A DNA stretch of 57,410 nucleotides from Caldifarciminota bacterium (lineage in GTDB: Bacteria; Hydrothermota; Hydrothermia; WGAB01), in contig JALXEF010000086.1 in the NCBI GenBank assembly GCA_027069855.1, forward strand, positions 1-57,410. The letters are read 5' to 3'. Made by a program: the position numbers and the translations under genes. Under the pieces are notes generated by a model. The model was not told the origin of the DNA. It saw only the letters and a list, made by a program, of their open reading frames with translations, and made no database searches. Positions 17,799 through 39,563 of the stretch are shown in pieces. Numbering within the stretch: the stretch's first letter is position 1; each line of letters starts with the position of its first letter.

Positions 17799-18176
17799 AT
17801 GAGCGAGGCCCAAATGACCAACTTGGACATTCAGTGCGCCGAATTGGGTCGGCGTCTGGCCGATATCCGAGGCATGGATGAAAAAACCGTCAATGCATTA
17901 ATGAGCGTGCTTGAAGAGCAAGGGCCCTATGCCATGTTCCTCTATCTCCGTGCTCGCCATAATCAAGTTGCGGGTCCTGTTACCGAACAAGCGTTGGATT
18001 TCCTTAGAAAACCCGGGATTTTCGGCCACAAGGTGGGTGAGACAAACGATGTCTTTGATGCCATCCAACGCTTAGCCGAGGATTTAGATGATCTTCTTTT
18101 CGTTCGCGACCTGTTGCGCACGGCCCTTTCTTATGCTCGTTATCACTTAAAGACCAAGGGAGGCGGCGCATCGTGA
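17799..18176 (+). CDS. cmr5: Type III small subunit Cmr5 (Cas11)
   Basis: 125 aa, mainly alpha-helical and charged, the normal size for Cmr5. It contains LYLRARHNQVAGPVTEQALDFL and a C-terminal LLRTALSYARYHLKTKG helix. It lies 2 nt after the cmr4 stop and overlaps cmr3, in the conserved cmr4-cmr5-cmr3 order of type III-C. It packs along the target strand in the effector complex. Confidence 0.82.
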   Translation: MSEAQMTNLDIQCAELGRRLADIRGMDEKTVNALMSVLEEQGPYAMFLYLRARHNQVAGPVTEQALDFLRKPGIFGHKVGETNDVFDAIQRLAEDLDDLLFVRDLLRTALSYARYHLKTKGGGAS

Positions 18177-19042: not shown

Positions 19043-20763
19043 AGATGCCCCGCTGGACCGGGAATCCCTTTGTGGATGCGGGCTTAGCGGCCATTGCAGC
19101 TGTCACGGAGAAAGATTTGTCCGCCCTAGAGCCCGACGACTTGGCCCACGCCGCTCGAGAACTGCGGCGCGTCTTGCTCAGCGACCAGGCGCTGGGGGTG
19201 GGGGTGAAAAAGGCCTTCGTTAAAGGCGCACTCTCACAACTCTTTCCTAATAGCGAGCTGGTCAATCCATCCAATTGGAGAGGGAAAACCCCCGAGGAAA
19301 GGGTTGAAAATGTCAGGCGGAAATTTCAGGAAGGGCTGCACCAGGATCTGGAGCGAGCCAGACAAAGTCTGACTCAACAAGGCGATTCGATCTGTCTCAT
19401 TTGTGGCCGTAAGGTTCCAAAAGAAGCTACTGTCCTCGTCCGCAAAGACAGGTTCCCCCTGCTGGCTGGGATCGTGAATTTCTACCCCGCGTTCACCCAC
19501 GGTGTTTCCATGTGCGGTCTTTGCGCTTTCGCTATCCGTTTCCTGCCCATGGCCGTGATGCGCACAGGTGTCTCTAACAGGCTCTGGTTCCTGCACGTGC
19601 AGGAACTGCCCATCGCCGCTGCAATCTCCAGGCGCTACGGCTGGGAGCATTTTAACAGGACTATTGCCGCCAATGAGGCGCTGGACTTCTATAGCGGATG
19701 GGAGACGGCGGGAGACGCGGGTACGGTTTTATATCTGCTCTATGAACTTCTGAGTGGAATGTCTGATCAGTTGCGGCAAATCTACCTGAATCCAACGCCG
19801 ACAACCGCGTATCTGTTTTCCAACGACAACCGAAATCCTTACATCCAGCCTCTTCCCATTCCCAACGATTTGCTCTATTTCCTCGCCAAGCTGCATCTGG
19901 AATCACTGGACGCTTTCAACCGCTTTTGGAGGGAGCTGCTGAAGGTAAAGGGCAATTTAGAAGGACAGGGGCGCAGGGACCGGATCCGGTTTGTGCAAAC
20001 CGTCGCCAACCGTTTGTTACGAGGCGAAGGCATCGTCGGAACTTGCCTAAGGCATGGGGATGACAAGAAGGACCAACCCCCAAAACTTTCGGGAGGTTGG
20101 CTCGGTCATCGGTTGTATCTCAAGGAGGTTAGAAAAATGCCTGAGGGCAAATTGGCCATTTTAGAACGCCTGGGAACAGGAATCGCCCAGAGCGAGGACG
20201 CCAGAAAGCGGATTATGGAACTCCGGCAGGCAGATCGAAGGGATCTCTACGGGCTCTTTCTGCGCTATGTTCGGGAAGGGTGGCTCAAATATGAGGAGTT
20301 TTACACACTCCTTCCCCCAAACGAGGACGCCTCGGCCAGCGAACTCAGGGATGTGCTGCTGGCAATCATCTACGAGTGGCTGGATTGCCAGGAGCAGGGT
20401 AGGGAGTTCCCGTCCCCCATCGCCGAACCCTCGACTTTGAGCACAGACGAGATGCTCCGGAAAATTGAGCAAATCGGCGAGAGACTGCATCGGGAGTTAC
20501 CCAATGTCTCCCGCTGGATCGGTCAACTCCAGACGGCCAGGACATCTGAACATGTTCGAAGGGTTTATCTCCTGGCGGTGCAGCGGGGAGCCCTGAGCTT
20601 CTCCGATTTCATCTTCCTTGCCCCGCTGGGTGACCGGCAGGGGTTGTGGCTCCTGCGGGATTACTTGCTGGCCTTTTTGTTTGATCGAGCAAGAGAGGCA
20701 CTACCTGAAGAGGAAGAGATCGCCGCCGGTGAGGCGGTAAGTGAAGAAAAGGAGGTCATGTGA
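19039..20763 (+). CDS. cas8b: Type I-B Cascade large subunit Cas8 (Cst1 / CXXC-CXXC family)
   Basis: 574 aa. The family signature CLICGRKV...MCGLCAF (two CXXC pairs near residues 115-160) is clear, with a conserved FPLLAGIVNFYPAFTHG between them. Cas8 recognises the PAM and recruits Cas3 in type I-B (Tneap/Cst variant). Its ATG overlaps the cmr3 stop by four bases, which directly couples the III-C and I-B modules. The C-terminus is very acidic (LPEEEEIAAGEAVSEEKEVM). In some schemes it is called cas8a1/cst1. Confidence 0.85.
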   Translation: MKMPRWTGNPFVDAGLAAIAAVTEKDLSALEPDDLAHAARELRRVLLSDQALGVGVKKAFVKGALSQLFPNSELVNPSNWRGKTPEERVENVRRKFQEGLHQDLERARQSLTQQGDSICLICGRKVPKEATVLVRKDRFPLLAGIVNFYPAFTHGVSMCGLCAFAIRFLPMAVMRTGVSNRLWFLHVQELPIAAAISRRYGWEHFNRTIAANEALDFYSGWETAGDAGTVLYLLYELLSGMSDQLRQIYLNPTPTTAYLFSNDNRNPYIQPLPIPNDLLYFLAKLHLESLDAFNRFWRELLKVKGNLEGQGRRDRIRFVQTVANRLLRGEGIVGTCLRHGDDKKDQPPKLSGGWLGHRLYLKEVRKMPEGKLAILERLGTGIAQSEDARKRIMELRQADRRDLYGLFLRYVREGWLKYEEFYTLLPPNEDASASELRDVLLAIIYEWLDCQEQGREFPSPIAEPSTLSTDEMLRKIEQIGERLHRELPNVSRWIGQLQTARTSEHVRRVYLLAVQRGALSFSDFIFLAPLGDRQGLWLLRDYLLAFLFDRAREALPEEEEIAAGEAVSEEKEVM

Positions 20764-20764
20764 A

Positions 20765-21850
20765 ATGGCGTACCCGGTGTTAACCGGTTCCGTGCTGGTG
20801 GAGGCCAACGGCGCCGCCCTGAACAATGCGGGGCTGGCAGAAGGGGCACGAGTGGAAAACCGTGTCGTGGTCAAGCAGATTCGCCTCGGCCGGCTTCGCT
20901 TTCCCTACGTTTCGGGACAGGCATGGCGGCGCTGGTGGCGGGAGGTGCTGTACTCCGACTTCGGCTGGACCCCCAGCGAGGTCATCCGTCAGGCGAAGAG
21001 CGCTTACACAAAAGGTAATCCCATCGCGCACGAGGAGGACGACCTCTTCGGCTACATGGCCGCTCGCAAGCGGCGGCGAGGACGGCGAGGGGCTGAGGAG
21101 AGTGAAGAGACGGCAGAGGGAGTAACGGGGACGAACCGACGTATTTCTCCTCTCAAAAATAGCCTCCTGATCTCTGTTCTGCCCAATGTCATTACCTCCG
21201 ACTTCGGCCATTTCTCCCGCAACTTGCCGCCGGATGCGGACATCATCCCTTTCGAGGCTGAACATTACACGACCTACTTGCAAGGTGTGTTTACCATCTC
21301 GCTTTCCGACGTGGGGCGCTTTGTGGTAGGGGAGATGGCCGACCTCTCAGATGAGATCGTTAATGCCCACAGGGATCGGTTGGAACAGGATCCTAACAAC
21401 GACCGGACCTACTGGCTTCCGAAGGAGGAACGGATCAGGCGGGTCCAGGATGTCATCAAGGCCCTGGGGCGCTTGCGAGGCGGAGCCCACCTTGCCCGCA
21501 ACCTCTCCGATGTCACGCCAATGGTTGTGCTGGTAGGTTTTCTCGACGGAGGAAACGCTCCCTTCCAGCGCCTCTTTGATCCGGACGAGAACAATGAGCG
21601 GGTTCGCCTAAACCTGAAGCGGCTGAAGTCGGTCCTTTCCGACTACAAAGACCGCCTTCTGGGCGGGGAAGGCAAGCCTCTCTTTTTCGGCTATCGCCCC
21701 ACCGTGCTGGCGAACGAGGAGGAAGTCCTGGCTGCGTTCCAGAACGAGGCCCCCTTCAACGAATGCATAGAGATTGCGGGTACGCCCCAGCAAGCGCTGG
21801 AGAGAGCAGCCGCGATGGTTCCCAAGACCTTTGAGAAGTATGTCTCCTGA
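20765..21850 (+). CDS. cas7: Type I-B Cascade backbone Cas7 (Cst2/DevR family)
   Basis: 361 aa from ATG 20765, 1 nt after the cas8 stop with GGAGG 9 nt upstream. It begins MAYPVLTGSVLVEANGAALNNAG, followed by RFPYVSGQAWRRWWREVL, a DevR/Cst2 hallmark; FEAEHYTTYLQGVFTISLSDVGRF and ARNLSDVTPMVVLVGFLDGGNAPF also fit. It has a low-complexity charged insert (RKRRRGRRGAEESEE). It polymerises along the crRNA in Cascade. Confidence 0.87.
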   Translation: MAYPVLTGSVLVEANGAALNNAGLAEGARVENRVVVKQIRLGRLRFPYVSGQAWRRWWREVLYSDFGWTPSEVIRQAKSAYTKGNPIAHEEDDLFGYMAARKRRRGRRGAEESEETAEGVTGTNRRISPLKNSLLISVLPNVITSDFGHFSRNLPPDADIIPFEAEHYTTYLQGVFTISLSDVGRFVVGEMADLSDEIVNAHRDRLEQDPNNDRTYWLPKEERIRRVQDVIKALGRLRGGAHLARNLSDVTPMVVLVGFLDGGNAPFQRLFDPDENNERVRLNLKRLKSVLSDYKDRLLGGEGKPLFFGYRPTVLANEEEVLAAFQNEAPFNECIEIAGTPQQALERAAAMVPKTFEKYVS

Positions 21851-21871
21851 GCAGAGGGAGGTGAGGAAACC

Positions 21872-22090
21872 TTGAGAACAATACAGATTGATCTGCCGCC
21901 CGAGGTTTCGGAAGAGGAAGTTCGATTCCTTTTGGCCCTCAAGCTTTACGAGCTTGGCCGTTTGAGCCTGGGCCAGGCCGCGAAGTTGGCCGGTTACTCG
22001 AAGCGGACCTTCATCGAGCTGCTGGGAAAACACGGCGTCCCTGTGGTCGCCTACTCCGCTGAGGAGTTGCGCGAGGAAGTTGAAGGATGA
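21872..22090 (+). CDS. UPF0175-family antitoxin
   Basis: 72 aa from TTG 21872, with GGGAGG about 9 nt upstream. The sequence LGQAAKLAGYSKRTFIELLGKHGVPVVAYSAEEL is the helix-turn-helix signature of UPF0175, the partner of DUF3368 PIN toxins. The same protein family probably represses its own operon through the HTH. Four-base overlap (ATGA) with the toxin gene. The pair lies inside the I-B operon between cas7 and cas5. Confidence 0.82.
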   Translation: MRTIQIDLPPEVSEEEVRFLLALKLYELGRLSLGQAAKLAGYSKRTFIELLGKHGVPVVAYSAEELREEVEG

Positions 22091-22539
22091 AGGAGCCGGC
22101 GGTTGCGGACAGCACATGCCTCATCGGTCTGGAGCGCATCGGGCGTCTTGACATCTTGCAGGCGCTGTTTGAGCCTCTGGTCATACCGCCCAAGGTTCAG
22201 GAGGAGTTTGGGGTGGCGATCGAGTGGATCGAAGTGGAACCACCTTCTAACCGGATGTTGGTAGATGCCCTGAAGTTGATGGTAGACGAGGGGGAAGCGG
22301 AAGCAATCGCTTTGGCGATGGAAAAGGGTTGGCCGCTGGTTGTGGACGATCGTAAAGCCAGAGCGTGGGCGAAACGTTTGGGCATTCGGGTGATCGGCAC
22401 GGCGGGGATTTTGGTCCGCGCGAAGCGGGAGGGTGTTATTCCGGCGGTTAAGCCGTTGATAGAAGCGTTGCAACAAGTGGGCTTTCGTCTGGGCACTGAG
22501 CTTGTGAGCGAGATGCTGCGCCTTGCGGGGGAGGAGTGA
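22087..22539 (+). CDS. DUF3368 PIN-domain ribonuclease toxin
   Basis: 150 aa. PIN-type acidic residues are visible: VADSTCLIGLERIG (Asp near residue 8), DEGEAEAIALA (Glu near 70) and LVVDDRKARAWAKRLGI (Asp pair near 87). The fold and partner match DUF3368 toxins, which act as metal-dependent RNases. All expected active-site acids seem present, so it may be functional. It is 6 nt before cas5. Confidence 0.85.
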   Translation: MKEPAVADSTCLIGLERIGRLDILQALFEPLVIPPKVQEEFGVAIEWIEVEPPSNRMLVDALKLMVDEGEAEAIALAMEKGWPLVVDDRKARAWAKRLGIRVIGTAGILVRAKREGVIPAVKPLIEALQQVGFRLGTELVSEMLRLAGEE

Positions 22540-22545
22540 AGTATT

Positions 22546-23232
22546 ATGCTGGAAGCCCTTCGTATTACGCTCACCGCGTACACTGCTTCTTTCCGGGTGC
22601 CCCATTTTGTCGGGCACCAGTTAACCCTTCCGGTGCCGCCGCTGTCCACAATTTACGGCTTGATCTCGGCGGCGGTTGGCCGCTGGGTGCTGCCGGAAGA
22701 AGTGGAATGGCTGGCTTATCGGCTCGAGTATGGCGGAAAGCAGATGGACCTGGAGGCCATATGGACGGTGGAACGTAAAAAGCCTCACGAAAGCGCCCGG
22801 TTTGTGACCCGCAATGTCATTCAGCGCGAGTTCCTCGCCTTCCCAGCCTTAACCCTTTACCTGCCCCCGGAGTGGGAGGCACCCTTCCGCCGCCCCCGTT
22901 ACCCCCTCCTGTTGGGTCGGACCCAGGATGTGGCCGGGGTGGAGGAGATCGCTCGGACGGTTTTAGAACCGGTAGATGAGGGCGAAGTTGGAGGCGTTTT
23001 GCTCCCCATGGAGCTGATCAAGATGGCTGAGCGCGGGTCCGCGTGGCTCCACAACCTTCCCGTCGCTTTCACCGAAGAACCGCTGCGCCATCCCCTCCGG
23101 ATGCATATCTTCGGCGTTGTGGATGCCCGTCGTCCGGCACATCTTCGAGGCCCGGAGGGCTGGCTGGTCAGGGATACCCAGACAAGTGCTATTGTGCCGA
23201 TATATCGGCGGGAATGGGTCCAGGGCGAATAG
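22546..23232 (+). CDS. cas5: Type I-B Cascade subunit Cas5
   Basis: 228 aa. The N-terminal RITLTAYTASFRVPHFVGHQLTLPVPPLSTIYGLISAAVG is the Cas5t/Cas5h signature (RAMP strand plus glycine-rich turn), and PRYPLLLGRTQDVA is the conserved LGR..D motif. It caps the crRNA 5' handle in Cascade. GGAGG is 11 nt upstream of ATG. There is a 19-nt gap to cas3. Confidence 0.85.
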   Translation: MLEALRITLTAYTASFRVPHFVGHQLTLPVPPLSTIYGLISAAVGRWVLPEEVEWLAYRLEYGGKQMDLEAIWTVERKKPHESARFVTRNVIQREFLAFPALTLYLPPEWEAPFRRPRYPLLLGRTQDVAGVEEIARTVLEPVDEGEVGGVLLPMELIKMAERGSAWLHNLPVAFTEEPLRHPLRMHIFGVVDARRPAHLRGPEGWLVRDTQTSAIVPIYRREWVQGE

Positions 23233-23251
23233 AGAGAGGAGGGGAACCGGC

Positions 23252-25522
23252 ATGATCCCTGAGGAGCCGCTGGCGAAATCGGGGGATCGGCCTGTTCCTT
23301 TAACTGAACATTCCCTCCAGGTCGCCCGCTATGCTGCGGCGATGGCAGAAGCTTACCGTGACCACTGGCGGAAGATCCTTGGGGAGGAGTGGACCGAGCG
23401 TCTATGCCAAGCCCTGGTTGTCGCTGCCCTCGTCCATGACCTCGGCAAGGCAGCCAAGGGGTTCCAACGCGCTCTGAATAACCCACGCGCACCCTGGGAA
23501 TTCCGGCACGAGGTTCTCTCCGCTGCACTTCTCTTAAGTCTTGACGATGGTGAAGAGGTGGAACTCGCTGCTGGAGCGGTCCTGACCCACCATCGGGATT
23601 TAGAGGACCAGAAGCTGAGGCAAGATGCTGGATGGGCTCCTTTGCCGGAACCGGATCTGGAGCGGAAGATAAGAGAAAGGTTCCATCAGAAGGCCAGGGA
23701 GATGAAGGCTTTTTGGGAGTGGGTCAGGACTTTCTGGGAAAACCAGACCGAGTTGTCCTCTTGGAATCTTCCCAAGACTCCAGAACTCCTCTTGCCCCCG
23801 ACTCCCTTAATCGAAAAGCTCGAACGAGATCTTTCTCAAGGAGAATTCTTCGAGAGTCCCAAAGCCTTGGCCCTGCTTTTGGCCCGAGGGAACCTCATGG
23901 CAGCGGACCATGCGGTAAGCGCTGGCGTTTCTACCTTTAAAATCCATTTCCCCATCCCCTCCTTTCCGCCCCCACGATCCTTCCAAAAGGAAGTGGGAGA
24001 TCATCGGGGAGACGCCCTTCTGGAGGCACCCACAGGATCGGGGAAGACCATAGCTGCCCTCCGCTGGGCTCTGAACAATCGCAAAGCGGGCGAACGAATC
24101 TTCTATCTTCTCCCTTACCAAGCGAGCATCGAGGCCATGGCGAATACACTGCAAAAGATGTTTAGAAAGGAACACGTGGCTGTTCTTCATGCCCGTGCCT
24201 TAGATTATGCTTTTCGTGAGCACTTTGAATCTACAGGCGAATATGAAACTGCCGTTGAAAAAGCCCGAGAAGAGGTAGAACTGAACCGCCTTGCCCACAA
24301 ACCCATCAAAGTAGCTACACCGTTTCAACTGCTTAGGTGGCTGTTCGGCATCCACCGTTTTGAAATCGGTATCAGCGAGATGGTTGGAGGCCTCTTCATC
24401 TTCGACGAGATCCACGCCTACGATGCGCATACTGTCGCACTAATAGTAGAAATGGTCAAAGTATTGAGGAAGTTGGGGGGACGCTTTCTTTTCATGAGCG
24501 CAACCTTTCCGGAATTCCTCAAAAATCTTCTGCGAGAGGCCTTAAACAATGAACCAGTCGAATTCAGTTTGGGAAAAGGATCAAAAGACGAATGGACTGT
24601 GCACTTTCTTAGACGGGTACGTCATCGTATCCGCTGGCATGAAAAATATCTCGAAGACTTGATTCCAACAGCCATAGATGCGGTTCGGAAAGGTCAGCGG
24701 GTCCTGATCGTGGCCAACCGGGTCACCCAGGCCCAGGAGATTTACCGCCGACTATCTGAGGACCTCAGCGGTGTGCTCCTTTTGCATTCCCGTTTCACCC
24801 GGAGGGACAGAGTTGCCAAGGAAAATACGATTATGAATGCACTCCGTGGTAAAGGCGGAGAGGATGTAAACGTTCTGGTGGCCACCCAGGTGGTGGAAGT
24901 CTCCTTGGACATAAGCTTTGACACGATTTTTACCGAAGTAGCCCCTGTGGACGACCTGCTACAGCGCTTCGGACGGGTAAACCGTTACGGGGAACACCCT
25001 GACGGGGTTGAAGTCCACGTGGCCACTTCTTTTAATGCGGATCGCCTCCGTCCGGTCTATGACCTGGATCGACTTCAAACGACCCTGGAAAGAGCACCTG
25101 GGGACGGCACTCCTTTAACAACGGAAGTAGCTACTTCTTGGGTTCATGCCGTTTACAAGGATGGCTGGACTTCAAAAGAGTGTCAAAAGTTTGAGCAAGC
25201 ACGAGGATCATTCCAGAAAGTCCTTTCCTCACTTCGTCCCCTCCATCATTTTGTTGAGATGGAACAGGAATTCTATGGTTTATTTCAAAGCGTTGAAGTT
25301 CTCCCCGTAAGGCTCTTTAGTGAGTACCACGAGCATTGGAAAAATAAACGCTATCTTTTAGCTCATCAACTCCTGGTCCCCATTTCTCTGGGTACTTTTT
25401 GGAGATTAAATAAAGATGGGAGCCTTATAAAACGTGATAGAATACTGATCGCCAATGTTGCCTATGATTCACAACTCGGTTTGCTTCCTGAAAGGATAGA
25501 TTTAGATGACTCGTTCCTTTGA
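23252..25522 (+). CDS. cas3: CRISPR-associated helicase-nuclease Cas3
   Basis: 756 aa from ATG 23252 (GAGGAGG upstream; the frame is open upstream inside cas5 but has no spaced ribosome site). HD nuclease: LTEHSLQVA (His20), ALVHDLGKAAKGF (His62-Asp63), HEVLSAALL and LTHHRD. Helicase: Walker A EAPTGSGKT, DEIH box FIFDEIHAYDAHT, motif III SATFP, motif VI QRFGRVNRYG. All catalytic motifs are intact, so the I-B arm should degrade DNA. Its base composition in the second half is more AT-rich than the III-C genes. Confidence 0.93.
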   Translation: MIPEEPLAKSGDRPVPLTEHSLQVARYAAAMAEAYRDHWRKILGEEWTERLCQALVVAALVHDLGKAAKGFQRALNNPRAPWEFRHEVLSAALLLSLDDGEEVELAAGAVLTHHRDLEDQKLRQDAGWAPLPEPDLERKIRERFHQKAREMKAFWEWVRTFWENQTELSSWNLPKTPELLLPPTPLIEKLERDLSQGEFFESPKALALLLARGNLMAADHAVSAGVSTFKIHFPIPSFPPPRSFQKEVGDHRGDALLEAPTGSGKTIAALRWALNNRKAGERIFYLLPYQASIEAMANTLQKMFRKEHVAVLHARALDYAFREHFESTGEYETAVEKAREEVELNRLAHKPIKVATPFQLLRWLFGIHRFEIGISEMVGGLFIFDEIHAYDAHTVALIVEMVKVLRKLGGRFLFMSATFPEFLKNLLREALNNEPVEFSLGKGSKDEWTVHFLRRVRHRIRWHEKYLEDLIPTAIDAVRKGQRVLIVANRVTQAQEIYRRLSEDLSGVLLLHSRFTRRDRVAKENTIMNALRGKGGEDVNVLVATQVVEVSLDISFDTIFTEVAPVDDLLQRFGRVNRYGEHPDGVEVHVATSFNADRLRPVYDLDRLQTTLERAPGDGTPLTTEVATSWVHAVYKDGWTSKECQKFEQARGSFQKVLSSLRPLHHFVEMEQEFYGLFQSVEVLPVRLFSEYHEHWKNKRYLLAHQLLVPISLGTFWRLNKDGSLIKRDRILIANVAYDSQLGLLPERIDLDDSFL

Positions 25523-26006
25523 GAGCATTAACGCCACGGTCTTTTACGCCTATCAGATTTGCAAGCGGGAGGCCTGGTTCTATTACCACAGGGTGAATCC
25601 TCCCCAGGAGCATCCACTTCTGGATCTGGGGCGCTTGGTCCACGAGACTTCCTACCGTCGATCCCGAAAGGAAATCTTTGTGGATCAGATTCTCAAAATC
25701 GACCTGTTCCAGAAAGAACTTGTGGCCGAGGTCAAACGCTCTTCACGCCACAGGAAAAGCGCCCGCCTGCAACTGGCTTATTATCTTTACTACCTCAAAC
25801 ACGAAAAGGGCCTTGAACTGAAAGGCATCCTTCTATTTCCCAAGGAACGAAGAACAGAAAAACTCGAGTTGACACCGGAACTGGAACGACAAATCGAAGA
25901 TCTTTTACAAGAGATGAAGCAAGTCTTGAGGGCCGAGTTGCCTCCTTCGCCTGTACGGATTCCCCATTGCCGTTCCTGCTCCTTCCTGGAGGTATGTTGG
26001 GGATAG
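25506..26006 (+). CDS. cas4: CRISPR adaptation exonuclease Cas4
   Basis: 166 aa, DUF83/RecB-nuclease family. Cys in YQICKREAWFYYH plus HCRSCSFLEVCWG at the C-terminus supply the four iron-sulfur ligands. GRLVHE and LVAEVKRSSR provide the nuclease His and (D/E)xK residues. It processes prespacers and helps set PAM and orientation. The start overlaps the cas3 stop by 17 nt. Confidence 0.9.
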   Translation: MTRSFESINATVFYAYQICKREAWFYYHRVNPPQEHPLLDLGRLVHETSYRRSRKEIFVDQILKIDLFQKELVAEVKRSSRHRKSARLQLAYYLYYLKHEKGLELKGILLFPKERRTEKLELTPELERQIEDLLQEMKQVLRAELPPSPVRIPHCRSCSFLEVCWG

Positions 26007-26009
26007 CCC

Positions 26010-27008
26010 ATGAAGCGCGTCATCTATATCTTCAGCAACGGCTGGCTCAAACGGGAAGGCAACACCCTCGTTTTGATCGGGGAGGAAGACGAACCCAAGA
26101 AAGTGATCCCCATTGAAGTGGTGGAAGAGATCCGGGTATTCTCCGAACTCACGACAAATAAACGCCTCCTGGAGTTCCTGACCCAGAAACATATCCCCAT
26201 GCATTTTTTCAACCATCACGGTTACTATATGGGCACTTACTACCCCAGGGAATACATGAACTCCGGGCTGATCACCTTGAAACAGGCGGAGCATTTCTTA
26301 AATCCCGAGTGGCGCATGGAGTTGGCCCGTGCGTTCGTGTACGGTGCCATTTCAAATATGCTCTTCGTCCTCCGTACCTATAGCTCCCGGGGCCGGGACC
26401 TGAGTTTCCAGATCCATGCACTGGAAAAGCAACTGTCCAAAATCCCGGATGCCGAAGCCCCTGCCGAACTCATGGCTGTGGAAGGACATGCCCGGGACCT
26501 GTACTACACGGCCTTTGACCTGATCACCCAAAACCCTGATTTTTCCTTTGAAACACGCACACGGCGGCCTCCTGCCAACCGAATGAATGCATTGATTTCC
26601 TTCGGGAACTCGCTTCTCTATGTAACAGCCCTCTCAGAAATTTATCGAACCCATCTGGACCCAAGAATCGGCTATCTTCATCAAACCAACGAAAGGAGTT
26701 TTTCCCTGAACTTGGATCTGGCAGAGATCTTCAAGCCCCTGATCGTGGACAGGACCATCTTCTCGCTCATCAACCGAGCAGAGATCAACACAGGCGACTT
26801 CCACGAAGAATTGGGCGGAATCTACCTTAAAGAGGCCGGGCGCAAGAAATTTATCCAGGCCTTTGAAAAGAGGCTCGCCGAAACCCTGACCCATAAACGC
26901 CTGAGGAGGAAGGTTTCTTATCGCCGATTGATTCGACTGGAATGCTACAAACTTTACAGACACTTCCTTGGAGAAGAAGATTACTTTCCCTACATACGGA
27001 CCCGATAA
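26010..27008 (+). CDS. cas1: CRISPR integrase Cas1 (type I-B)
   Basis: 332 aa. The catalytic triad regions are visible: ELMAVEGHARDLYYTAF (Glu), GYLHQTNERSFSLNLDLAEIFKPLIVDR (His and Asp/Glu). The I-B signature start KRVIYIFSNGWLKREGNTLVL is present. Three nt separate it from cas4 and it abuts cas2 directly. Intact, consistent with a large array with many closely related spacers. Confidence 0.95.
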   Translation: MKRVIYIFSNGWLKREGNTLVLIGEEDEPKKVIPIEVVEEIRVFSELTTNKRLLEFLTQKHIPMHFFNHHGYYMGTYYPREYMNSGLITLKQAEHFLNPEWRMELARAFVYGAISNMLFVLRTYSSRGRDLSFQIHALEKQLSKIPDAEAPAELMAVEGHARDLYYTAFDLITQNPDFSFETRTRRPPANRMNALISFGNSLLYVTALSEIYRTHLDPRIGYLHQTNERSFSLNLDLAEIFKPLIVDRTIFSLINRAEINTGDFHEELGGIYLKEAGRKKFIQAFEKRLAETLTHKRLRRKVSYRRLIRLECYKLYRHFLGEEDYFPYIRTR

Positions 27009-27275
27009 ATGTTCGTGATTCTGGTTTATGATGCAGCCGAAAGAAGGGTGCAGAAATTTCATAGAATTTGCAGAAGGTATCTAACCTGGGTGCAACTTTC
27101 TGTGTTTGAGGGAGAACTTTCCAGAGCCCAGTTGGAGCGGCTATTGGCAGAATTGAAAGCCGTTATGGATGAGGAGGAAGATTCCATCATCGTCTACACC
27201 TTTCGGACACTACATTACTTTAAAAGACAGGTGATCGGGAAAAGCAAGGGGAATCCCGAAGAGCTGTTCTGGTAA
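27009..27275 (+). CDS. cas2: CRISPR adaptation protein Cas2
   Basis: 88 aa, MFVILVYDAAERRVQKFHRICRRYL at the start in two parts, with Asp8 at the end of the first ferredoxin strand as in active Cas2; VQLSVFEGELS and IIVYTF also fit. It bridges two Cas1 dimers. It is the last gene of the operon and lies 432 nt upstream of the first repeat. Confidence 0.93.
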   Translation: MFVILVYDAAERRVQKFHRICRRYLTWVQLSVFEGELSRAQLERLLAELKAVMDEEEDSIIVYTFRTLHYFKRQVIGKSKGNPEELFW

Positions 27276-27707
27276 AGCGCGGCGTGGGGTCTATCTGTCG
27301 ATTGTCGTTAAGTGTTTCTGCTGCGTGTGTTCTCCGAGGAGCGCACATTGGTAAGGGCTTATCCTGTGGCGAGGGGGATAGAGTTTGGTTTTTAGGAGAA
27401 CCTTGGGAGCGGCACGGACAGAGCGAGCCCCCAGCTCTCAAGAGTCCACCATACCGGAGCTATCGGATCCATCACTGTCTGCATTGACCGGGTCCCAGGT
27501 CGGTCCAGATCCTCTCTCAACAGGCCGCCATACGGAGCTATGAGAGTTCCTAAGACCAGCAGCCAACCGCAAAAGTAGGGGGTGCCGCCGGATCCCCTGG
27601 GGATTCTGCACCACCGAGGGTTCAGCGGCAAAACCGCGGGAAAGGTGCATTGCAAAACTCCCAGAACTGCTGTATTCTCAAGGCACAGACCATATAGGAG
27701 CTACTTG
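27276..27707 (+). promoter_or_regulatory. CRISPR leader with a three-times repeated motif
   Basis: No gene is visible here. A motif [A/G]CCATAnn(n)GGAGCTA occurs at 27448-27462, 27527-27540 and 27689-27703; the last copy ends 4 nt before the first repeat. Start-to-start spacings are 79 and 162 nt. Such leader motifs can anchor Cas1-Cas2 or a DNA-bending protein in other systems. A weak stem-loop with trailing T residues near 27360-27394 might end the cas transcript. The array promoter lies inside the leader. Confidence 0.75.
27650..27678 (+). promoter_or_regulatory. Predicted pre-crRNA promoter
   Basis: TTGCAA (27650-27655), a 17-nt spacer and TATTCT (27673-27678) predict transcription starting about 20 nt before the first repeat and reading through the array on the plus strand, the same direction as the cas genes. 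Confidence 0.5.
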
Positions 27708-30700
27708 GTTCCCAGCCTACCTACAAGGAATGGAAACAGAAATTCGCCTCCACCACCCCCTTTGAGCTCCGGGAGTTCCCAGCCTACCTACAAGGAATGG
27801 AAACGTAGTGCCACCGATACTCCAGACCAGGTTACACCAAGTTCCCAGCCTACCTACAAGGAATGGAAACTCGTGTACAGCATGGCACACCTCCTTTTGG
27901 TTTGGGGTTCCCAGCCTACCTACAAGGAATGGAAACGGCCGTGGCCCGCACGCCCAGGCCAAGGGGTTTCATGTAGTTCCCAGCCTACCTACAAGGAATG
28001 GAAACGCACCCTCCAGTCAACCTGTGCCCCACCCCCCTCCCGTTCCCAGCCTACCTACAAGGAATGGAAACAGGCCTTCGGTGCTGTAGAAGAGGTGCAC
28101 CCCGGGCTCGTTCCCAGCCTACCTACAAGGAATGGAAACGTGGCTCAAAAATAGGAGGTTCATGATGGCACTCAAAGTTCCCAGCCTACCTACAAGGAAT
28201 GGAAACATGAGAAGTGAAGGGGCCCCGCGCATAGTCGTATCCCGTTCCCAGCCTACCTACAAGGAATGGAAACTGGGATCACGCCTCCTGGGTACGATCC
28301 GTCTGGGAAGTTCCCAGCCTACCTACAAGGAATGGAAACAGCCTGGAAATATGCGAAGCACCTCGCTCTGCAGGTGCGTTCCCAGCCTACCTACAAGGAA
28401 TGGAAACCGAACGCCTCTACCTGCGAGACGCAGGGGAACAGGGGTTCCCAGCCTACCTACAAGGAATGGAAACGGTTGAATTGGTCTTCTATGTAGGCCC
28501 GGACCGCGAAGTTCCCAGCCTACCTACAAGGAATGGAAACTGCTGATCTGGTTGCCGGGATCGTGAGGGTGTGTTCGTTCCCAGCCTACCTACAAGGAAT
28601 GGAAACCCAAGAGACCATACCGGGATACTGCACCAAACCGAGTTCCCAGCCTACCTACAAGGAATGGAAACGGACCATTTCGGGGAGGATGCAGTCCCAG
28701 ACGGAGGTTCCCAGCCTACCTACAAGGAATGGAAACTCGTGTCCACCTCCGAGGGCCCGGGCTGGGGAATGTACGTTCCCAGCCTACCTACAAGGAATGG
28801 AAACCGAACTTCAGACTCAGGAACTTCTTGAACATCACGGGTTCCCAGCCTACCTACAAGGAATGGAAACGCGGAGGGAAGGAATGACCTGCCCAGCGGT
28901 CCGCATGTTCCCAGCCTACCTACAAGGAATGGAAACTCGGTGGTGTAAAGCAGATGGCCGACTGGTGTTGCACGGTTCCCAGCCTACCTACAAGGAATGG
29001 AAACAGCATCTCGGCCTCCAGGGTGTCGCTGGTTTCTCCGTGTTCCCAGCCTACCTACAAGGAATGGAAACGTTCCTTCTCCACGGGGACGGCGTTCACC
29101 ACGAGCCGTTCCCAGCCTACCTACAAGGAATGGAAACGGCCTACCCCGGGCTGGTGGCGGCGATGGTGCCCCGTTCCCAGCCTACCTACAAGGAATGGAA
29201 ACCAGTAAGTCGGTGAGCGTGACTACCTGTTGGAGATTGTTCCCAGCCTACCTACAAGGAATGGAAACCTCTGGAAGTCCTCCAATATGCCGGAGAAACC
29301 GTCCGTTCCCAGCCTACCTACAAGGAATGGAAACCGCTCTCCTGGAGGACGACATGGTGGCGTACCTGTTGTTCCCAGCCTACCTACAAGGAATGGAAAC
29401 TTCTGGCAACCCCAGGGGCCGAGAGGTTCATGTGGTGTTCCCAGCCTACCTACAAGGAATGGAAACTGCTTGGATTGCCTCCAGTCCAGCGCGACCTTCG
29501 TGTTCCCAGCCTACCTACAAGGAATGGAAACCAAGGTGCCCAGGCGGATGCGCAAGCCGGATAAAAGTGTTCCCAGCCTACCTACAAGGAATGGAAACTC
29601 ATATTGGTGGTGTCGGTGTTGATATCTCCGGTAGGGTTCCCAGCCTACCTACAAGGAATGGAAACTGCAATCTCCCGGGCCATCCGCCATGTCCTGGGGT
29701 GTTCCCAGCCTACCTACAAGGAATGGAAACATGAAGAGCGTAGGGAGTGCTGTGATCGCATCCGGGTTCCCAGCCTACCTACAAGGAATGGAAACTCCTC
29801 AAGGTGGTGGTCAAGGGCGGTCGGTTCACCGTTCCCAGCCTACCTACAAGGAATGGAAACAGGCCACCATCCGGGGTGGCCAGCGGCCGGTTGAGGGTTC
29901 CCAGCCTACCTACAAGGAATGGAAACGTTCTATGCATGGCCCCATCGGGCGGTCCTTGAAGGTTCCCAGCCTACCTACAAGGAATGGAAACGGTCCACGG
30001 CCCCGTCCTCAATCACCACCTGCACCACGTTCCCAGCCTACCTACAAGGAATGGAAACTCTCTCGCCTTGAGCAGTTTGCCCGGTGCCGGAGGGTTCCCA
30101 GCCTACCTACAAGGAATGGAAACGTTCCTAACCGGAGGTAAAACAATATGAGCGCTTTGTTCCCAGCCTACCTACAAGGAATGGAAACAGAGCTTGATCA
30201 CGGCAAAACTCAGCGGGTCCGCCGGGTTCCCAGCCTACCTACAAGGAATGGAAACCATCGTTCCAGGTACTGCCGTCATACGACTGAAGTACCGTTCCCA
30301 GCCTACCTACAAGGAATGGAAACCTATGCTCGCATAGTTCAGGACATCACGGTAGTTGCCCGTTCCCAGCCTACCTACAAGGAATGGAAACGAGAATGTC
30401 GGAGGACTCAATCTTTGTGGTGTCGCCGCGTTCCCAGCCTACCTACAAGGAATGGAAACGGCTTTCTCGATGGCACGTAAGACTTCTCGCTCAAGTTCCC
30501 AGCCTACCTACAAGGAATGGAAACGCGTAGCAAAGCCGCTGGCCGTGTTCGTTTCTGGCGGTTCCCAGCCTACCTACAAGGAATGGAAACGGAAATCCGG
30601 CCGAGGGGGATGCGGGGGATACGGGGTTCCCAGCCTACCTACAAGGAATGGAAACCACTATCAGGAACGATATTATCCTTGTAATACTTACGTTCCCAGC

Positions 30701-33700
30701 CTACCTACAAGGAATGGAAACGAGAAAGCGGGAGAAAGCGTGCTGCCCATCCCGTTCCGTTCCCAGCCTACCTACAAGGAATGGAAACGTTATTATCTTA
30801 ATTGGAGCTCTCAGGCGATCAACGGTTCCCAGCCTACCTACAAGGAATGGAAACCATTCTACCCTCACGAGGTAGAACTCAAAGTCGTCTGGTTCCCAGC
30901 CTACCTACAAGGAATGGAAACAATTTCTCCCGGTCTGCGGTGAAGTAAAGATTGGCAAGTTCCCAGCCTACCTACAAGGAATGGAAACCTATTATCAACG
31001 CCCTCATGGCTGTTGAAGGACGCACGTTCCCAGCCTACCTACAAGGAATGGAAACTTCCACATGTCCCAGGGTCACGGGCCCATACTTGAGCGTTCCCAG
31101 CCTACCTACAAGGAATGGAAACGGCGCATGGTGACCGTATCCCCTGCCGTGTCGATGGCGTTCCCAGCCTACCTACAAGGAATGGAAACGCCTCCAGGTC
31201 GGCGCGGTACACCAGGAAGAGGATCGTTCCCAGCCTACCTACAAGGAATGGAAACGTACACAATGTCGGCATAGTCTTCTAATGCCGCCTGGGTTCCCAG
31301 CCTACCTACAAGGAATGGAAACCCGATGCAAATGTAGTCAATGCCGTAGGTCTTGGCGAGTTCCCAGCCTACCTACAAGGAATGGAAACAATATCGGGTT
31401 GGATCAACTGGCGCGGGCCCGAATGCGTTCCCAGCCTACCTACAAGGAATGGAAACATCTATCTCCAGGGTCGTGTTTGCGAGGTCCTGGTAGTTCCCAG
31501 CCTACCTACAAGGAATGGAAACTCAACTCCTTGACCTTATTCCGGAGTTCCATATTTCCCGTTCCCAGCCTACCTACAAGGAATGGAAACTGTTGTAGGG
31601 GGTTAATGCCAAGCGGTGGTACTTCGTGTTCCCAGCCTACCTACAAGGAATGGAAACGCGACATGGCAGCTGCTATGGGCGTGAACATCCTGGTTCCCAG
31701 CCTACCTACAAGGAATGGAAACCGAAGGACCCCGTTGCCTTTTGGGTGCTGTCAAACTTGTTCCCAGCCTACCTACAAGGAATGGAAACGGGCGGTCGTT
31801 ATGGACTCGGCGGAGTTGTCTATGCTGTTCCCAGCCTACCTACAAGGAATGGAAACAAAGTACTTGCGATGAGGGATATACTGTCACTTGTAAGTTCCCA
31901 GCCTACCTACAAGGAATGGAAACGAATGGCAATCTGAACCTTGAGGATCGCCCAGCGGAGTTCCCAGCCTACCTACAAGGAATGGAAACGCCAGGCCCCA
32001 CTCTGTCCACGGTGAAGGCGTACAGGTTCCCAGCCTACCTACAAGGAATGGAAACATCTATCTCCAGGGTCGTGTTTGCGAGGTCCTGGTAGTTCCCAGC
32101 CTACCTACAAGGAATGGAAACGTCCACACCCTGGGCCTTTACCAGGTACCGGAGGGCGTTCCCAGCCTACCTACAAGGAATGGAAACATGCCCTCTCGGA
32201 TATCCCCGATGTAGTTCCCAAGCCGTTCCCAGCCTACCTACAAGGAATGGAAACCAATGTAACCCTCTGGAGAAAGGCGGAGATGTACGAGTTCCCAGCC
32301 TACCTACAAGGAATGGAAACCGATGAGGATGAGATACAGGCCGAACAGTGCGATCGCGTTCCCAGCCTACCTACAAGGAATGGAAACCCATCACGATCAC
32401 CATCATGCCCGGCCGTGAGGCCGTGTTCCCAGCCTACCTACAAGGAATGGAAACGTGCAGGATTTCCGGTTTCGGGTAAAGGGCGAAGGACGTTCCCAGC
32501 CTACCTACAAGGAATGGAAACTGCCCACCAGGGGAGAAGGCTATAGATCTTCTCCACGTTCCCAGCCTACCTACAAGGAATGGAAACTGAGTTCCTGCTT
32601 CAGGTCCTCCTTGAGGGCCTGGAGTTCCCAGCCTACCTACAAGGAATGGAAACGATACGCCGACATGCTTCACCTCCTGGATCACAAACGTTCCCAGCCT
32701 ACCTACAAGGAATGGAAACGCCGGAAACAGATTTACCCTTGAGAGCGCTCAGGCCGTTCCCAGCCTACCTACAAGGAATGGAAACTCGGCGCGGCCGCAG
32801 GGTGCTGGGGGGGCGACACTGGGTTCCCAGCCTACCTACAAGGAATGGAAACGTATTTCTTCGGCCTGCTACGGAAAGTCGCCCCGCTGTTCCCAGCCTA
32901 CCTACAAGGAATGGAAACGCGCATAGTCGTATCCCTCCCAAGGCTGCACGGAGGGTTCCCAGCCTACCTACAAGGAATGGAAACCTCTGTCGCAACTTTT
33001 CGCCCGCCACCCTTGCCCTGGGTTCCCAGCCTACCTACAAGGAATGGAAACGTGAAACTTGACCCTCACCTGGGGGCCTATGTGCACGTTCCCAGCCTAC
33101 CTACAAGGAATGGAAACGCGCCTCGCCCCGGCCCGGGCGGTGCTGCGCGCGCAAGTTCCCAGCCTACCTACAAGGAATGGAAACCCAGTTTGGGGTCACG
33201 CTGGGCAACCACACGCCGGGGTTCCCAGCCTACCTACAAGGAATGGAAACGGTACCACTCATCTACGGCGATTGTTGGCCAGTCATGTTCCCAGCCTACC
33301 TACAAGGAATGGAAACTACTGGAGGGCCTTCACCAGGCGGTTTGCCACCGAGTTCCCAGCCTACCTACAAGGAATGGAAACATGTCGGCCTTGATGCTGT
33401 CCCAGTCGGGCGTGTCAGGGTTCCCAGCCTACCTACAAGGAATGGAAACTGGCGGGAACTGGCCCAAGAAATCCTGCGGATCAACGTTCCCAGCCTACCT
33501 ACAAGGAATGGAAACACTATCTGGGAAAAGTTTGGACCTCGCCCCTTAAAGGAGTTCCCAGCCTACCTACAAGGAATGGAAACGATTTGTAGAGTTTAAA
33601 CACTCGTTAATCTCTTGCGGTGTTCCCAGCCTACCTACAAGGAATGGAAACGCGATACGGTTCTCGTGGACGTGCGTCCCCAGGAGGTTCCCAGCCTACC

Positions 33701-36700
33701 TACAAGGAATGGAAACGGTTATTTGTTTAACTCGTCTGCCTACCCTGTCTCTGTTCCCAGCCTACCTACAAGGAATGGAAACAGGGTCCTCTGAAGTTGA
33801 CGAATGGCCAGGACCGCCGGTTCCCAGCCTACCTACAAGGAATGGAAACCGCTTTCGTGGCTTGTGCCGCTTACGCTGATGGTGGGTTCCCAGCCTACCT
33901 ACAAGGAATGGAAACTGGGTGGTGGCCCTACTGGCAGCGGCAGGATTGAGCGGTTCCCAGCCTACCTACAAGGAATGGAAACTGCTTCTCCATCTCCTTC
34001 TTCAGTCGCTCCTCTTCCAGTTCCCAGCCTACCTACAAGGAATGGAAACATCTCAATCTCAAGCCAGTGTTCACGCAGGAATGCGGTTCCCAGCCTACCT
34101 ACAAGGAATGGAAACCTGGGATGAGCACGCAGAAGCGGAAACCCAGCACCGTTCCCAGCCTACCTACAAGGAATGGAAACCATTCTGGGCGACACGGTAA
34201 TGGTGCGCGGCATCAAGTTCCCAGCCTACCTACAAGGAATGGAAACTGGAACGCCTCCATCGCCCTCTGCACTTCCTTGGACGTTCCCAGCCTACCTACA
34301 AGGAATGGAAACGTGGACCCGAAGGCCGTGGAGTGGGAGCGTAACCGCGTTCCCAGCCTACCTACAAGGAATGGAAACACAGGATGGCCTCGTCTCCGTA
34401 TCTGGTCACGGCCTGTTCCCAGCCTACCTACAAGGAATGGAAACGAGGCCCTCGGCGATGTGCTTTAGGAGGGCCGTTAGGTTCCCAGCCTACCTACAAG
34501 GAATGGAAACGGTACCACTCATCTACGGCGATTGTTGGCCAGTCATGTTCCCAGCCTACCTACAAGGAATGGAAACTGGCGGGAACTGGCCCAAGAAATC
34601 CTGCGGATCAACGTTCCCAGCCTACCTACAAGGAATGGAAACGAAGGCCCGGGGCACATACGGCACGCTGTCCTCAAAGTTCCCAGCCTACCTACAAGGA
34701 ATGGAAACGCAGGTCTCCGGCGATGTCCTCCAGTTCCCTGGGATCGTTCCCAGCCTACCTACAAGGAATGGAAACGTGCTTCAGATCCTACCTGGGTTGA
34801 AACTTGAGCCCGTTCCCAGCCTACCTACAAGGAATGGAAACACCTGCCCCTGGCTCCGATGGACCGCCCCTGGGACGTTCCCAGCCTACCTACAAGGAAT
34901 GGAAACATGTCTTTAAAGGTGATTTCGGACGCCCGTTTCATCCCCGTTCCCAGCCTACCTACAAGGAATGGAAACGCAATGAAAAGATGCTTGCCATCTT
35001 TATCGCTGATGTTCCCAGCCTACCTACAAGGAATGGAAACTGGGTCATCTTGCTGATGATGTTGCTGAGGTCGGCGTTCCCAGCCTACCTACAAGGAATG
35101 GAAACAGTTCCCCAGGCCTCAGCCGGAGGGATTTCACCCCTGAACGTTCCCAGCCTACCTACAAGGAATGGAAACTTTTTCAGAACTGACCAGCGAACCA
35201 ACGCGCCGCCGAGTTCCCAGCCTACCTACAAGGAATGGAAACACGCTTTGCAGGATCAGCAGGATTCCGCGTGCAAGGTGTTCCCAGCCTACCTACAAGG
35301 AATGGAAACGTTCCTCAACGACTTGTTTCTCCATGTACACCTGGGCGTTCCCAGCCTACCTACAAGGAATGGAAACTATTTGAGCACCCAGAGATCGGGA
35401 CTTTCCTGGTAGTTCCCAGCCTACCTACAAGGAATGGAAACTTGTCCTCAGATTTCATAGCAGATGCGATAGGTGATCTCGTTCCCAGCCTACCTACAAG
35501 GAATGGAAACCGGATACTGTACTTCTGCGCCTCCCGCTTCACCCACGTTCCCAGCCTACCTACAAGGAATGGAAACATGGTCACGAACCCGCCGTACCGG
35601 CGGGCCAGAGCCGTTCCCAGCCTACCTACAAGGAATGGAAACGCAAGGTCGTACGCCTTAGCACAGATACCGGCATAAGGTTCCCAGCCTACCTACAAGG
35701 AATGGAAACATCATTCCACCATTTCAATCAAGATAGGGACTTGACAGTTCCCAGCCTACCTACAAGGAATGGAAACGCGACATGGCGGCCGCTATGGGGG
35801 TGAACATCCAGGTTCCCAGCCTACCTACAAGGAATGGAAACCGCAGCCCTCCCGGTGTTCGCAGTACGCAGGGGGCCGTTCCCAGCCTACCTACTAGGAA
35901 TGGAAACTGATAATTGCGGTTAACACTACGCCCGTTTCCACCGTGTTCCCAGCCTACCTACAAGGAATGGAAACTTTCTTCAAAGCTTGGGGGTTTTACA
36001 AGTACGGAGCGTTCCCAGCCTACCTACAAGGAATGGAAACAAGTTTCCTTCGCCATAAAGGTTGTGCTAAACTCTCGTTCCCAGCCTACCTACAAGGAAT
36101 GGAAACGATAGCATTTACACGAATGCCCCTGCGGAAGGCGTACGTTCCCAGCCTACCTACAAGGAATGGAAACGGATTTGCTGCGGGTCGCTTGGGGTAA
36201 TGGATTTCGTGTTCCCAGCCTACCTACAAGGAATGGAAACTGATTTTGCGTCGGGCCTCTTCAACGGCAGCAAGATGTTCCCAGCCTACCTACAAGGAAT
36301 GGAAACCCGTTAATCGTTGTTCTCCAACATCGGCTTGAGCCGTTCCCAGCCTACCTACAAGGAATGGAAACATGCTATGACGTCGACCTTTTGGGCAGAG
36401 GTTGACAAGTTCCCAGCCTACCTACAAGGAATGGAAACCGCCGACCGCCAGGGTGCCGGGCTTCCCGGCCCGGGGGTTCCCAGCCTACCTACAAGGAATG
36501 GAAACCTTCCCTCGATGTAGGGGTAAGGGGTGATGTCGATCACGTTCCCAGCCTACCTACAAGGAATGGAAACGTACAACACACGGAGAAACACCGTGCG
36601 GCCACTCGGTTCCCAGCCTACCTACAAGGAATGGAAACGGAGGGTAAACATGAACGGTGCTTTTCCCTTAGCCCGTTCCCAGCCTACCTACAAGGAATGG

Positions 36701-39234
36701 AAACATAAATCTGGACATTCCTGAAGACAGAAGACTGCTTGTTCCCAGCCTACCTACAAGGAATGGAAACTCAGCCGCAAGGCCAGCCTCAGAGGTGCCA
36801 GCATCGGCCGTTCCCAGCCTACCTACAAGGAATGGAAACGGTTCAAAGGGGACTTTCAGCACCTTGATGACCTCTTCGTTCCCAGCCTACCTACAAGGAA
36901 TGGAAACACAACCTCCGGGGCGAAGGCCTGGACTTCGTGATCCGTTCCCAGCCTACCTACAAGGAATGGAAACGTCCTACCTGTAAGCAGGAACAGGGCC
37001 CTGGCTCCGTTCCCAGCCTACCTACAAGGAATGGAAACGGCGCACGGTGACCGTATCCCCTGCCGTGTCGATGGCGTTCCCAGCCTACCTACAAGGAATG
37101 GAAACGGGCGATCCTTCCCCTGGTGTTTCTGGGAGCAGGACTGTTCCCAGCCTACCTACAAGGAATGGAAACTGCCTTGACCCGGTCCCCGTAGTCTCAG
37201 TTTAATCGTTCCCAGCCTACCTACAAGGAATGGAAACGGCTTTGACAGGAGATAGACGCCCACAATCAATCGCGTTCCCAGCCTACCTACAAGGAATGGA
37301 AACCTTTGAGGGTGGCATGGCAAGGTTCATGAACACCATGTTCCCAGCCTACCTACAAGGAATGGAAACTGTTCCTGGACGCCATCGACACGGCAGGGGA
37401 TACGGTGTTCCCAGCCTACCTACAAGGAATGGAAACGAGTTTCCTGGAGTCTGCGGCGCACTTCGGGGCGCAGTTCCCAGCCTACCTACAAGGAATGGAA
37501 ACTGGACAGGATAAGCGGCTGGGAAATGGGGTTGTGGTGTTCCCAGCCTACCTACAAGGAATGGAAACATGGCCTACCTGGCCACTCCCGGCTCCAATGT
37601 GCCGGGTTCCCAGCCTACCTACAAGGAATGGAAACTGTTCCTGGACGCCATCGACACGGCAGGGGATACGGTGTTCCCAGCCTACCTACAAGGAATGGAA
37701 ACGAGTTTCCTGGAGTCTGCGGCGCACTTCGGGGCGCAGTTCCCAGCCTACCTACAAGGAATGGAAACGTTCGATCGACTGGTCCGGCCAGATCTCGAAC
37801 CTGGTTCCCAGCCTACCTACAAGGAATGGAAACGACTATCTGTTTAACTCGTCCGCTTATCCCGTCCCGTTCCCAGCCTACCTACAAGGAATGGAAACTC
37901 ATCGAAAAGGCAATCAAACTTCGGAGGGAAGGAAAAGTTCCCAGCCTACCTACAAGGAATGGAAACCTGGATCAGGTTGTATAGGCTATTTCTGTCCATT
38001 CCGTTCCCAGCCTACCTACAAGGAATGGAAACAACATCGGGCTGGATCAACTGACACGGGCCCGGATGGTTCCCAGCCTACCTACAAGGAATGGAAACGT
38101 ATCAGGAGAGCACCGATGTCTGGGTGCTCAAATAGTTCCCAGCCTACCTACAAGGAATGGAAACTGGCCTGGAACTGGAACGGCAGGCCCTGCAGCTCCG
38201 GGTTCCCAGCCTACCTACAAGGAATGGAAACTGTCTCTGTAGATGTGGAGCACCACGGGCCCCTCCGTTCCCAGCCTACCTACAAGGAATGGAAACAAAT
38301 TTCACGACTTGGGGAGTGTTTTGTGTGGGGCGGGTTCCCAGCCTACCTACAAGGAATGGAAACTTGGGCCACCTCGTGGACTACACCGGTAGCGGCCTCC
38401 GTTCCCAGCCTACCTACAAGGAATGGAAACGATTATCTGTTCAACTCGTCCGCTTATCCTGTTCCCTCGTTCCCAGCCTACCTACAAGGAATGGAAACAT
38501 ATGTATCAGAGGGCACTAAGGCATATAGTTGACGCGTTCCCAGCCTACCTACAAGGAATGGAAACGAAAACGAAGGCGACCCTGGTCTCACCCTTCATCT
38601 CCGTTCCCAGCCTACCTACAAGGAATGGAAACGCGCTCCTCAATCGTTGCGATCTGCTTTTCGTAGCCCGTTCCCAGCCTACCTACAAGGAATGGAAACA
38701 CACAAGCGCGTGCTGGAACACAGCGGTCAATGTGCGTTCCCAGCCTACCTACAAGGAATGGAAACTAATCAGCTTTGCTCCGTGTTCCACAGCAGCCCGA
38801 AGTGTTCCCAGCCTACCTACAAGGAATGGAAACGGTTCACCACCTTCGTGGCTACATATGCAGCCGCCAGGTTCCCAGCCTACCTACAAGGAATGGAAAC
38901 GTAATCCAGCCCCTCCAGCTCCTCCTCGGGGATATCGAGTTCCCAGCCTACCTACAAGGAATGGAAACTGTTTTCGGCCAGCACGCCGTGGAGCGTGTGC
39001 TGGCGTTCCCAGCCTACCTACAAGGAATGGAAACTTATACAGAGTTAAAGAGGCACCCAGGCCAGGAAAGGGTTCCCAGCCTACCTACAAGGAATGGAAA
39101 CTGCCGGCTCATACTGTTTTCCCCTCCGCAGCGGCCCTGTTCCCAGCCTACCTACAAGGAATGGAAACCCTGGTATGACCCCCGGCCCCGGCGTTGGCGA
39201 GATGGTTCCCAGCCTACCTACAAGGAATGGAAAC
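27708..39234 (+). CRISPR. CRISPR array, about 174 repeats of 30 nt (hand count)
   Basis: The repeat begins GTTCCCAGCC, continues TACCTACAAG and ends GAATGGAAAC (30 nt), typical of type I-B/III repeats with a GAAAC end. Unit length averages 66.5 nt, so spacers are mostly 35-38 nt. By hand I count 174 repeats; the one starting at 35878 has a single A-to-T change, the others look identical. The repeat end, decayed distal end and leader position agree on plus-strand transcription. One array serves both III-C and I-B. Exact duplicate, variant, overlapping and opposite-strand spacers are listed in findings. Confidence 0.97.
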
Positions 39235-39563
39235 CAAAATCCCGAATGAAAAGTTCCCAGGCGGCCAGAGCCGTTCCCAGCTTACCTACAAGGGATGGAA
39301 AGGTGACTGCCTGAGAGAAAGCCAGCGACAGATTCTGCGTTTCCAGCCTACCAACAAGGTATGGAAACGGCCTCCAGTTCTCCGATCCGCTGTTTCAGAT
39401 CGTCCGTTCCCAGCCTACCTAAAGAGGAATGGAAACCTCCTCAAGTTGATCGACAGCCTGGCCCAGAACGTTCCCAGCCTACCTACAAGGGATGGAAAGG
39501 ATGCTCGCGCGCAAGACTCGCCTTATAACCACTTCTCGTTCCCAGCCCATAAGAAATGAAAGG
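39235..39563 (+). CRISPR. Decayed leader-distal end of the array
   Basis: Five degenerate repeats follow: 39273-39302 (three changes, ends GGAAAG), 39339-39368 (GTTTCC start, three changes), 39406-39436 (31 nt, AAAGAG insertion change), 39470-39499 (GGGATGGAAAG end) and 39538-39563 (truncated). Decay at the old end is normal for CRISPR arrays. The last fragment merges into a phage-derived coding remnant. Spacer-like gaps remain about 33-38 nt. Confidence 0.85.

What the first reader, a model, noticed from the sequence alone, without database searches (positions are those of the whole stretch)
33717..38468. Three spacers target one coding site that differs only by mostly synonymous changes
Spacers at 33717-33752, 37834-37868 and 38431-38468 translate in one frame to (D/G)YLFNSSAYPV(P/S), with differences almost all at third codon positions. 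This shows independent acquisitions from related phages whose protein is under purifying selection.
Basis: seen in the sequence. Interest (0 to 1): 0.6.

Follow-up and report, generated by a model that had tools for sequence, protein, structure and literature searches.

The report
CRISPR spacers repeatedly sampling one gene
A bacterium's long CRISPR memory array holds three separately captured copies of one stretch of what looks like a single invader gene, differing mostly in ways that leave the encoded protein unchanged; this is a neat but ordinary trace of repeated infection by related viruses.

Summary
Spacers 91, 153 and 162 of a 177-spacer array (27708-39499) start at the same position of one homologous sequence and share an open + frame, (G/D)YLFNSSAYPV(S/P). 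Eleven of 36 columns vary, 8 at third codon positions. Only two of 12 codons change the residue (permutation P about 0.01). In-array mutation is very unlikely: the repeats carry one substitution in about 5,200 bases. Independent capture from diverged homologues is the best reading.

The trio is not unique. Five further families share a target (52/141 plus 146=150; 60/122; 56/156; 116/157 inverted; 8/79 shifted), and a relative's array has a similar trio. Exact duplicates look like array recombination instead.

No protospacer was found in phage records, IMG/VR, GTDB species genomes or 147 genomes of the host's phylum, so 'phage' and 'purifying selection' stay inferences. [quoted passage not shown] The trio's crRNAs match the mRNA sense strand, so they suit the DNA-targeting I-B effector and not transcript targeting.

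Known phenomenon, low interest.

The parts
33717..33752 (+). Spacer 91, GYLFNSSAYPVS; leader-nearest, so probably the youngest of the trio
37834..37868 (+). Spacer 153, DYLFNSSAYPV(P)
38431..38468 (+). Spacer 162, DYLFNSSAYPVP(S); leader-distal, so probably the oldest of the trio
27708..39499 (+). CRISPR array: 178 repeats of GTTCCCAGCCTACCTACAAGGAATGGAAAC, 177 spacers (172 distinct); last four repeats (39273-39499) degenerate
27276..27707 (+). Probable leader, between cas2 and the first repeat
   Evidence: position only; inference
31123..31159 (+). Spacer 52; spacer 141 (37039-37075) is the same site with one difference; spacers 146/150 (37370-37406, 37636-37672) overlap it by 26 nt on the other strand, sense reading FLDAIDTAGDTVTVR
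31390..31426 (+). Spacer 56; same-start pair with spacer 156 (38033-38068), NIGLDQL(A/T)RARM
31658..31692 (+). Spacer 60; same-start pair with spacer 122 (35777-35811), 4 differences
35377..35411 (+). Spacer 116; spacer 157 (38099-38134) is the same site in opposite orientation, YQES(P/T)D(L/V)WVLK in the sense of 157
28207..28243 (+). Spacer 8; its last 17 nt equal the first 17 nt of spacer 79 (32919-32954)
10926..11702 (+). cas6
11695..19042 (+). Type III module: cmr1, cmr6, csx11/cas10c, cmr4, cmr5, cmr3 (III-C-like)
19039..25522 (+). Type I-B module: cas8b-like, cas7 (cst2), PIN gene, cas5, cas3
25506..27275 (+). Adaptation genes cas4, cas1b, cas2

Best explanation
The three spacers are independent Cas1-Cas2(-Cas4) acquisitions, at three times in the history of one array, of the same protospacer from diverged homologues of one gene, most likely of related phages that keep infecting this lineage. 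The shared start is set by a conserved PAM next to the site. The synonymous differences are the neutral, or possibly escape-driven, divergence of the source gene, whose protein is constrained. Shown: shared site, common frame, synonymous excess, lack of comparable mutation in the repeats, and repetition of the pattern in five other families. Inferred: phage origin, the role of the PAM, order of acquisition from array position, and escape as the reason for recapture. Each pair of trio spacers differs at one or more of positions 2, 3 and 7, in the stretch that acts as seed in type I systems (general knowledge), so older spacers may have failed against later variants.
For: Pair scores 20-27 against a shuffle maximum of 14. 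Common open + frame with two residue changes in 12 codons, P = 0.011. One substitution in about 5,200 bases of repeats against 11 variable columns of 36. Five further target-sharing families in the array and a same-start trio in a relative's array. Complete I-B adaptation and interference genes beside the array. Precedents in natural communities.
Against: No match to the trio in any collection searched, so neither a phage source nor a PAM is shown; absence from these collections does not exclude a phage. The synonymous excess rests on 12 codons, and the smaller families are not individually significant. The array comes from a draft genome of 178 contigs, and reads were not available.
Confidence: 0.88

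Rival explanations
1. One acquisition followed by duplication within the array and later point mutation of the copies.
For: Exact duplicates exist and two of the three keep neighbouring order (84 and 87 = 103 and 104; 146-147 = 150-151), so array recombination does occur.
Against: Repeats of the same age range carry one substitution in about 5,200 bases (Fisher P about 4e-24). Mutation in an array would not favour synonymous changes. The trio's neighbouring spacers are not shared.
Confidence: 0.03
2. Recapture is guided: the existing, partly mismatched crRNA steers the adaptation machinery back to the same protospacer, so same-start families are more common than chance sampling gives.
For: Four families share the exact start on the same strand and a fifth shares both boundaries inverted, while only two relations are shifted.
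Against: Shifted overlaps between diverged homologues are hard to detect, and PAM-limited sampling of a small pool explains shared starts: 6 same-start pairs among 14,706 imply an effective pool of about 2,450 sites. Primed acquisition is described as taking new spacers from sequences in cis near the target (abstract of PMC6568314).
Confidence: 0.06
3. Chance resemblance, or an artefact of assembly joining arrays of different strains.
For: Draft assembly in 178 contigs.
Against: Chance is excluded by the shuffles. Each of the three lies between different neighbours in one continuous run of repeats. Even a merger of strains would leave three separate captures of one site.
Confidence: 0.03

Closest known systems
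Several spacers against one conserved viral site in natural arrays ('pink berry' consortia, PMC10370329; Antarctic Flavobacterium, PMC4814470)
   Same: Imperfect spacers aligning to one protospacer; reverse-complement spacers from one protospacer, there in a conserved capsid gene; here the trio and the inverted pair 116/157.
   Different: There the viral target was sequenced; here no protospacer is known, and kinship is read from the spacers alone.
[quoted passage not shown]
   Same: Cas6, a type III module and I-B cas genes with a single cas4-cas1-cas2 set beside one array (paper).
   Different: The type III module here is III-C-like (Csx11/Cas10c). The trio targets the template strand, so it serves DNA targeting only.
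CCN-type PAM of type I-B systems (PMC8406132, PMC8482600)
   Same: I-B with Cas1-Cas2-Cas4. The one flank that can be read here, upstream of spacer 79 from its overlap with spacer 8, ends in CCC.
   Different: A single inferred flank; the PAM of this system is not established.

Membership tests
CRISPR array of a type I-B system | Regular identical repeats with unique spacers of similar length | tested here: met
   178 repeats of 30 nt, spacers 33-40 nt
CRISPR array of a type I-B system | I-B signature genes (cas8b, cst2-type cas7, cas5t, cas3, cas1b, cas2, cas4) | tested here: met
   NCBIfam and PADLOC matches; the Cas8b match is weak
CRISPR array of a type I-B system | Matching protospacers in phage or mobile-element genomes with a PAM | tested here: inconclusive
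   No match in the collections searched
Type III-C effector module | Csx11/Cas10c large subunit with Cmr-type partners | tested here: met
   TIGR02682 Csx11 E 2e-80; PADLOC Cas10c E 1e-115, Cmr3, Cmr5, Cmr6
Independent capture of one protospacer from diverged homologues | Spacers similar far beyond chance, with the same boundaries | tested here: met
Independent capture of one protospacer from diverged homologues | Differences not explained by mutation in the array | tested here: met
   repeats nearly free of substitutions
Independent capture of one protospacer from diverged homologues | Differences follow codon structure | tested here: met
   trio P = 0.011; smaller families not significant alone
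Independent capture of one protospacer from diverged homologues | Each variant found in a source genome | tested here: inconclusive
   no source genome found

The most novel reading that the evidence does not exclude
Acquisition in this I-B/III-C system is steered back to previously used protospacers once they have drifted, so that the array 'updates' old spacers instead of sampling new sites; the synonymous trio would be successive updates.
Probability: 0.05. Interest if true: 0.6.

Novelty: new member of a known kind. Interest (0 to 1): 0.2.

Why it matters
If the inference holds, the array is a time-ordered record of how one viral gene changed while its protein stayed the same, and it gives peptide bait (YLFNSSAYPV and others) for finding the uncultured virus. 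It does not change what is known about CRISPR adaptation.

Tried and rejected
Vibrio phage LP.2 match (22 of 24 nt, E 0.5): out of frame with its annotated gene and not the same peptide, rejected as chance. Loose pattern FNSSAYP in IMG/VR gave 62 contigs; none continues as YLFNSSAYPV, and their spacer matches are no better than those of reversed spacers. Spacers of seven relatives' arrays against this array: best score 16, one pair, near the shuffle maximum. Phage-like contigs of relatives, found with portal and terminase models: spacer matches at the level of reversed spacers. Self-targeting within the window: the best match (spacer 50, 19 nt with one mismatch) is not convincing; the trio in the whole own genome: only the array itself. 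A 13-nt similarity of spacer 148 to the trio was at shuffle level and dropped. A literature search for synonymous escape gave nothing.

Full report
What is there. The window carries a CRISPR array of 178 repeats (GTTCCCAGCCTACCTACAAGGAATGGAAAC) and 177 spacers at 27708-39499. Upstream on the same strand are cas6, a Cmr-type module with a Csx11/Cas10c large subunit (III-C-like), and a type I-B module followed by cas4-cas1-cas2. A stretch of about 430 bases separates cas2 from the first repeat and is the likely leader. The last four repeats (39273-39499) are degenerate, as expected of the old end. The repeat ends in ATGGAAAC, resembling the usual 5' handle of type I and III crRNAs (general knowledge), so the + strand is taken as the crRNA strand.

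The observation. They start at the same base of one homologous sequence and read (G/D)YLFNSSAYPV(S/P) in + frame 0. Pair scores are 20-27; shuffled spacers never exceeded 14 in five rounds. Eleven of 36 columns vary, all transitions: positions 2, 3, 7, 12, 21, 24, 27, 30, 33, 34 and 36. Eight are third positions and one is a synonymous first position; two change the residue. Position 36 of spacer 153, which is one base short, was filled with C; any base gives the same residue there. Re-placing the substitutions at random and taking the best of six open frames gives P = 0.011. An earlier version trimmed to 35 nt leaves out the changed twelfth codon and gave 0.0008, which flatters the case; the pooled P of 0.0004 in that call includes it. 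The reverse frame with the same third positions has stops.

Mutation in the array is not the likely cause. Spacers and repeats age together in an array, yet apart from the degenerate end the repeats carry one substitution in about 5,200 bases, against 11 variable columns in 36 for the trio (Fisher P about 4e-24). Gene conversion among repeats could hide some mutations there, but the exact spacer duplicates (57=66; 84 and 87 = 103 and 104; 146-147 = 150-151) also show no change. The latter two keep neighbouring order, as recombination between repeats would leave them.

The trio is one of six families. 52 and 141 share start and strand with one difference, and 146/150 overlap them by 26 nt on the other strand. 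60/122 and 56/156 share start and strand with 4 and 5 differences. 116 and 157 share boundaries in opposite orientation. 8 and 79 overlap exactly by 17 nt with a 20-nt shift; 0.0008 such 17-nt matches are expected by chance. The smaller families are compatible with coding divergence but not significant one by one (P 0.19-0.69 for those with several differences). Among relatives' arrays, G022 has a same-start trio that differs at one codon, read as R, Q or H if the first base starts a codon, so repeated capture is not always synonymous. Six same-start pairs among 14,706 would correspond to an effective pool of about 2,450 sites under uniform sampling; any hot spot makes the true pool larger.

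How it most likely works. Cas1-Cas2, probably with Cas4, took the same PAM-bounded fragment from diverged versions of one gene at three times; position in the array makes 162 the oldest and 91 the youngest. 153 and 162, nine spacers apart, differ least. Each pair differs at one or more of positions 2, 3 and 7, within the seed of type I interference (general knowledge), so drift could have let later variants through and made a new capture useful. This last step is inference. The crRNAs equal the inferred mRNA, so they pair with the template strand and cannot guide the type III effector to the transcript; the I-B effector is the likely user. Other families include antisense members (116, 52, 141), so the array as a whole is not strand-restricted. 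The upstream flank of spacer 79, read from spacer 8, ends in CCC, which fits the CCN PAM of several I-B systems (PMC8482600; PMC8406132), but it is a single datum.

What could not be shown. No protospacer was found in INPHARED phages, IMG/VR, GTDB species genomes (trio only), 147 genomes of the host's phylum (trio and 8/79) or plasmids at high identity. In the host's own genome the trio's pattern occurs only in the array. Self-targeting by the other spacers outside the window was not fully tested, because the search scored only two stretches of that genome. The organism was not identified by name.

Comparison and verdict. Repeated and imperfect spacers against one conserved viral site are known from natural communities (PMC10370329; PMC4814470), and I-B with type III effectors sharing one array is a described arrangement (PMC8482600). 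The finding is a clean instance of a known process.

Noticed in passing
window 39492-40256 (+): ORF beginning inside the last degenerate repeat, with a PBECR2 nuclease domain and weak similarity to a phage minor head protein: a possible phage remnant just beyond the old end of the array.
   Followed up: partly
window 22087-22539 (+): A PIN-domain gene (DUF3368, PADLOC PDC-S70) lies between cas7 and cas5 inside the I-B operon.
   Followed up: no
window 31457-31492 and 32056-32091; 33251-33485 and 34511-34612; 37370-37472 and 37636-37738: Exact spacer duplicates, two of them with neighbouring order kept, suggesting recombination between repeats.
   Followed up: partly
L027 (G022:C20), array on the - strand: A relative's array has a same-start trio TGGTCTTTAC(GG/AG/AT)GCTCAATATGATGATAACGGGGA that differs within a single codon, probably non-synonymously.
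   Followed up: no
window 41598-41628 and 41965-41995: A 31-nt direct repeat (CCCTCAATCCACGCCCACCAGGGGCGAGGAC), two copies 367 nt apart, 94% identical, outside the array.
   Followed up: no
window 26010-27008 (+): Cas1 is closest, among the GTDB hits found, to Bacteroidota proteins (45-46% identity), although relatives in the host's class carry similar repeats; the locus may have moved horizontally.
   Followed up: no
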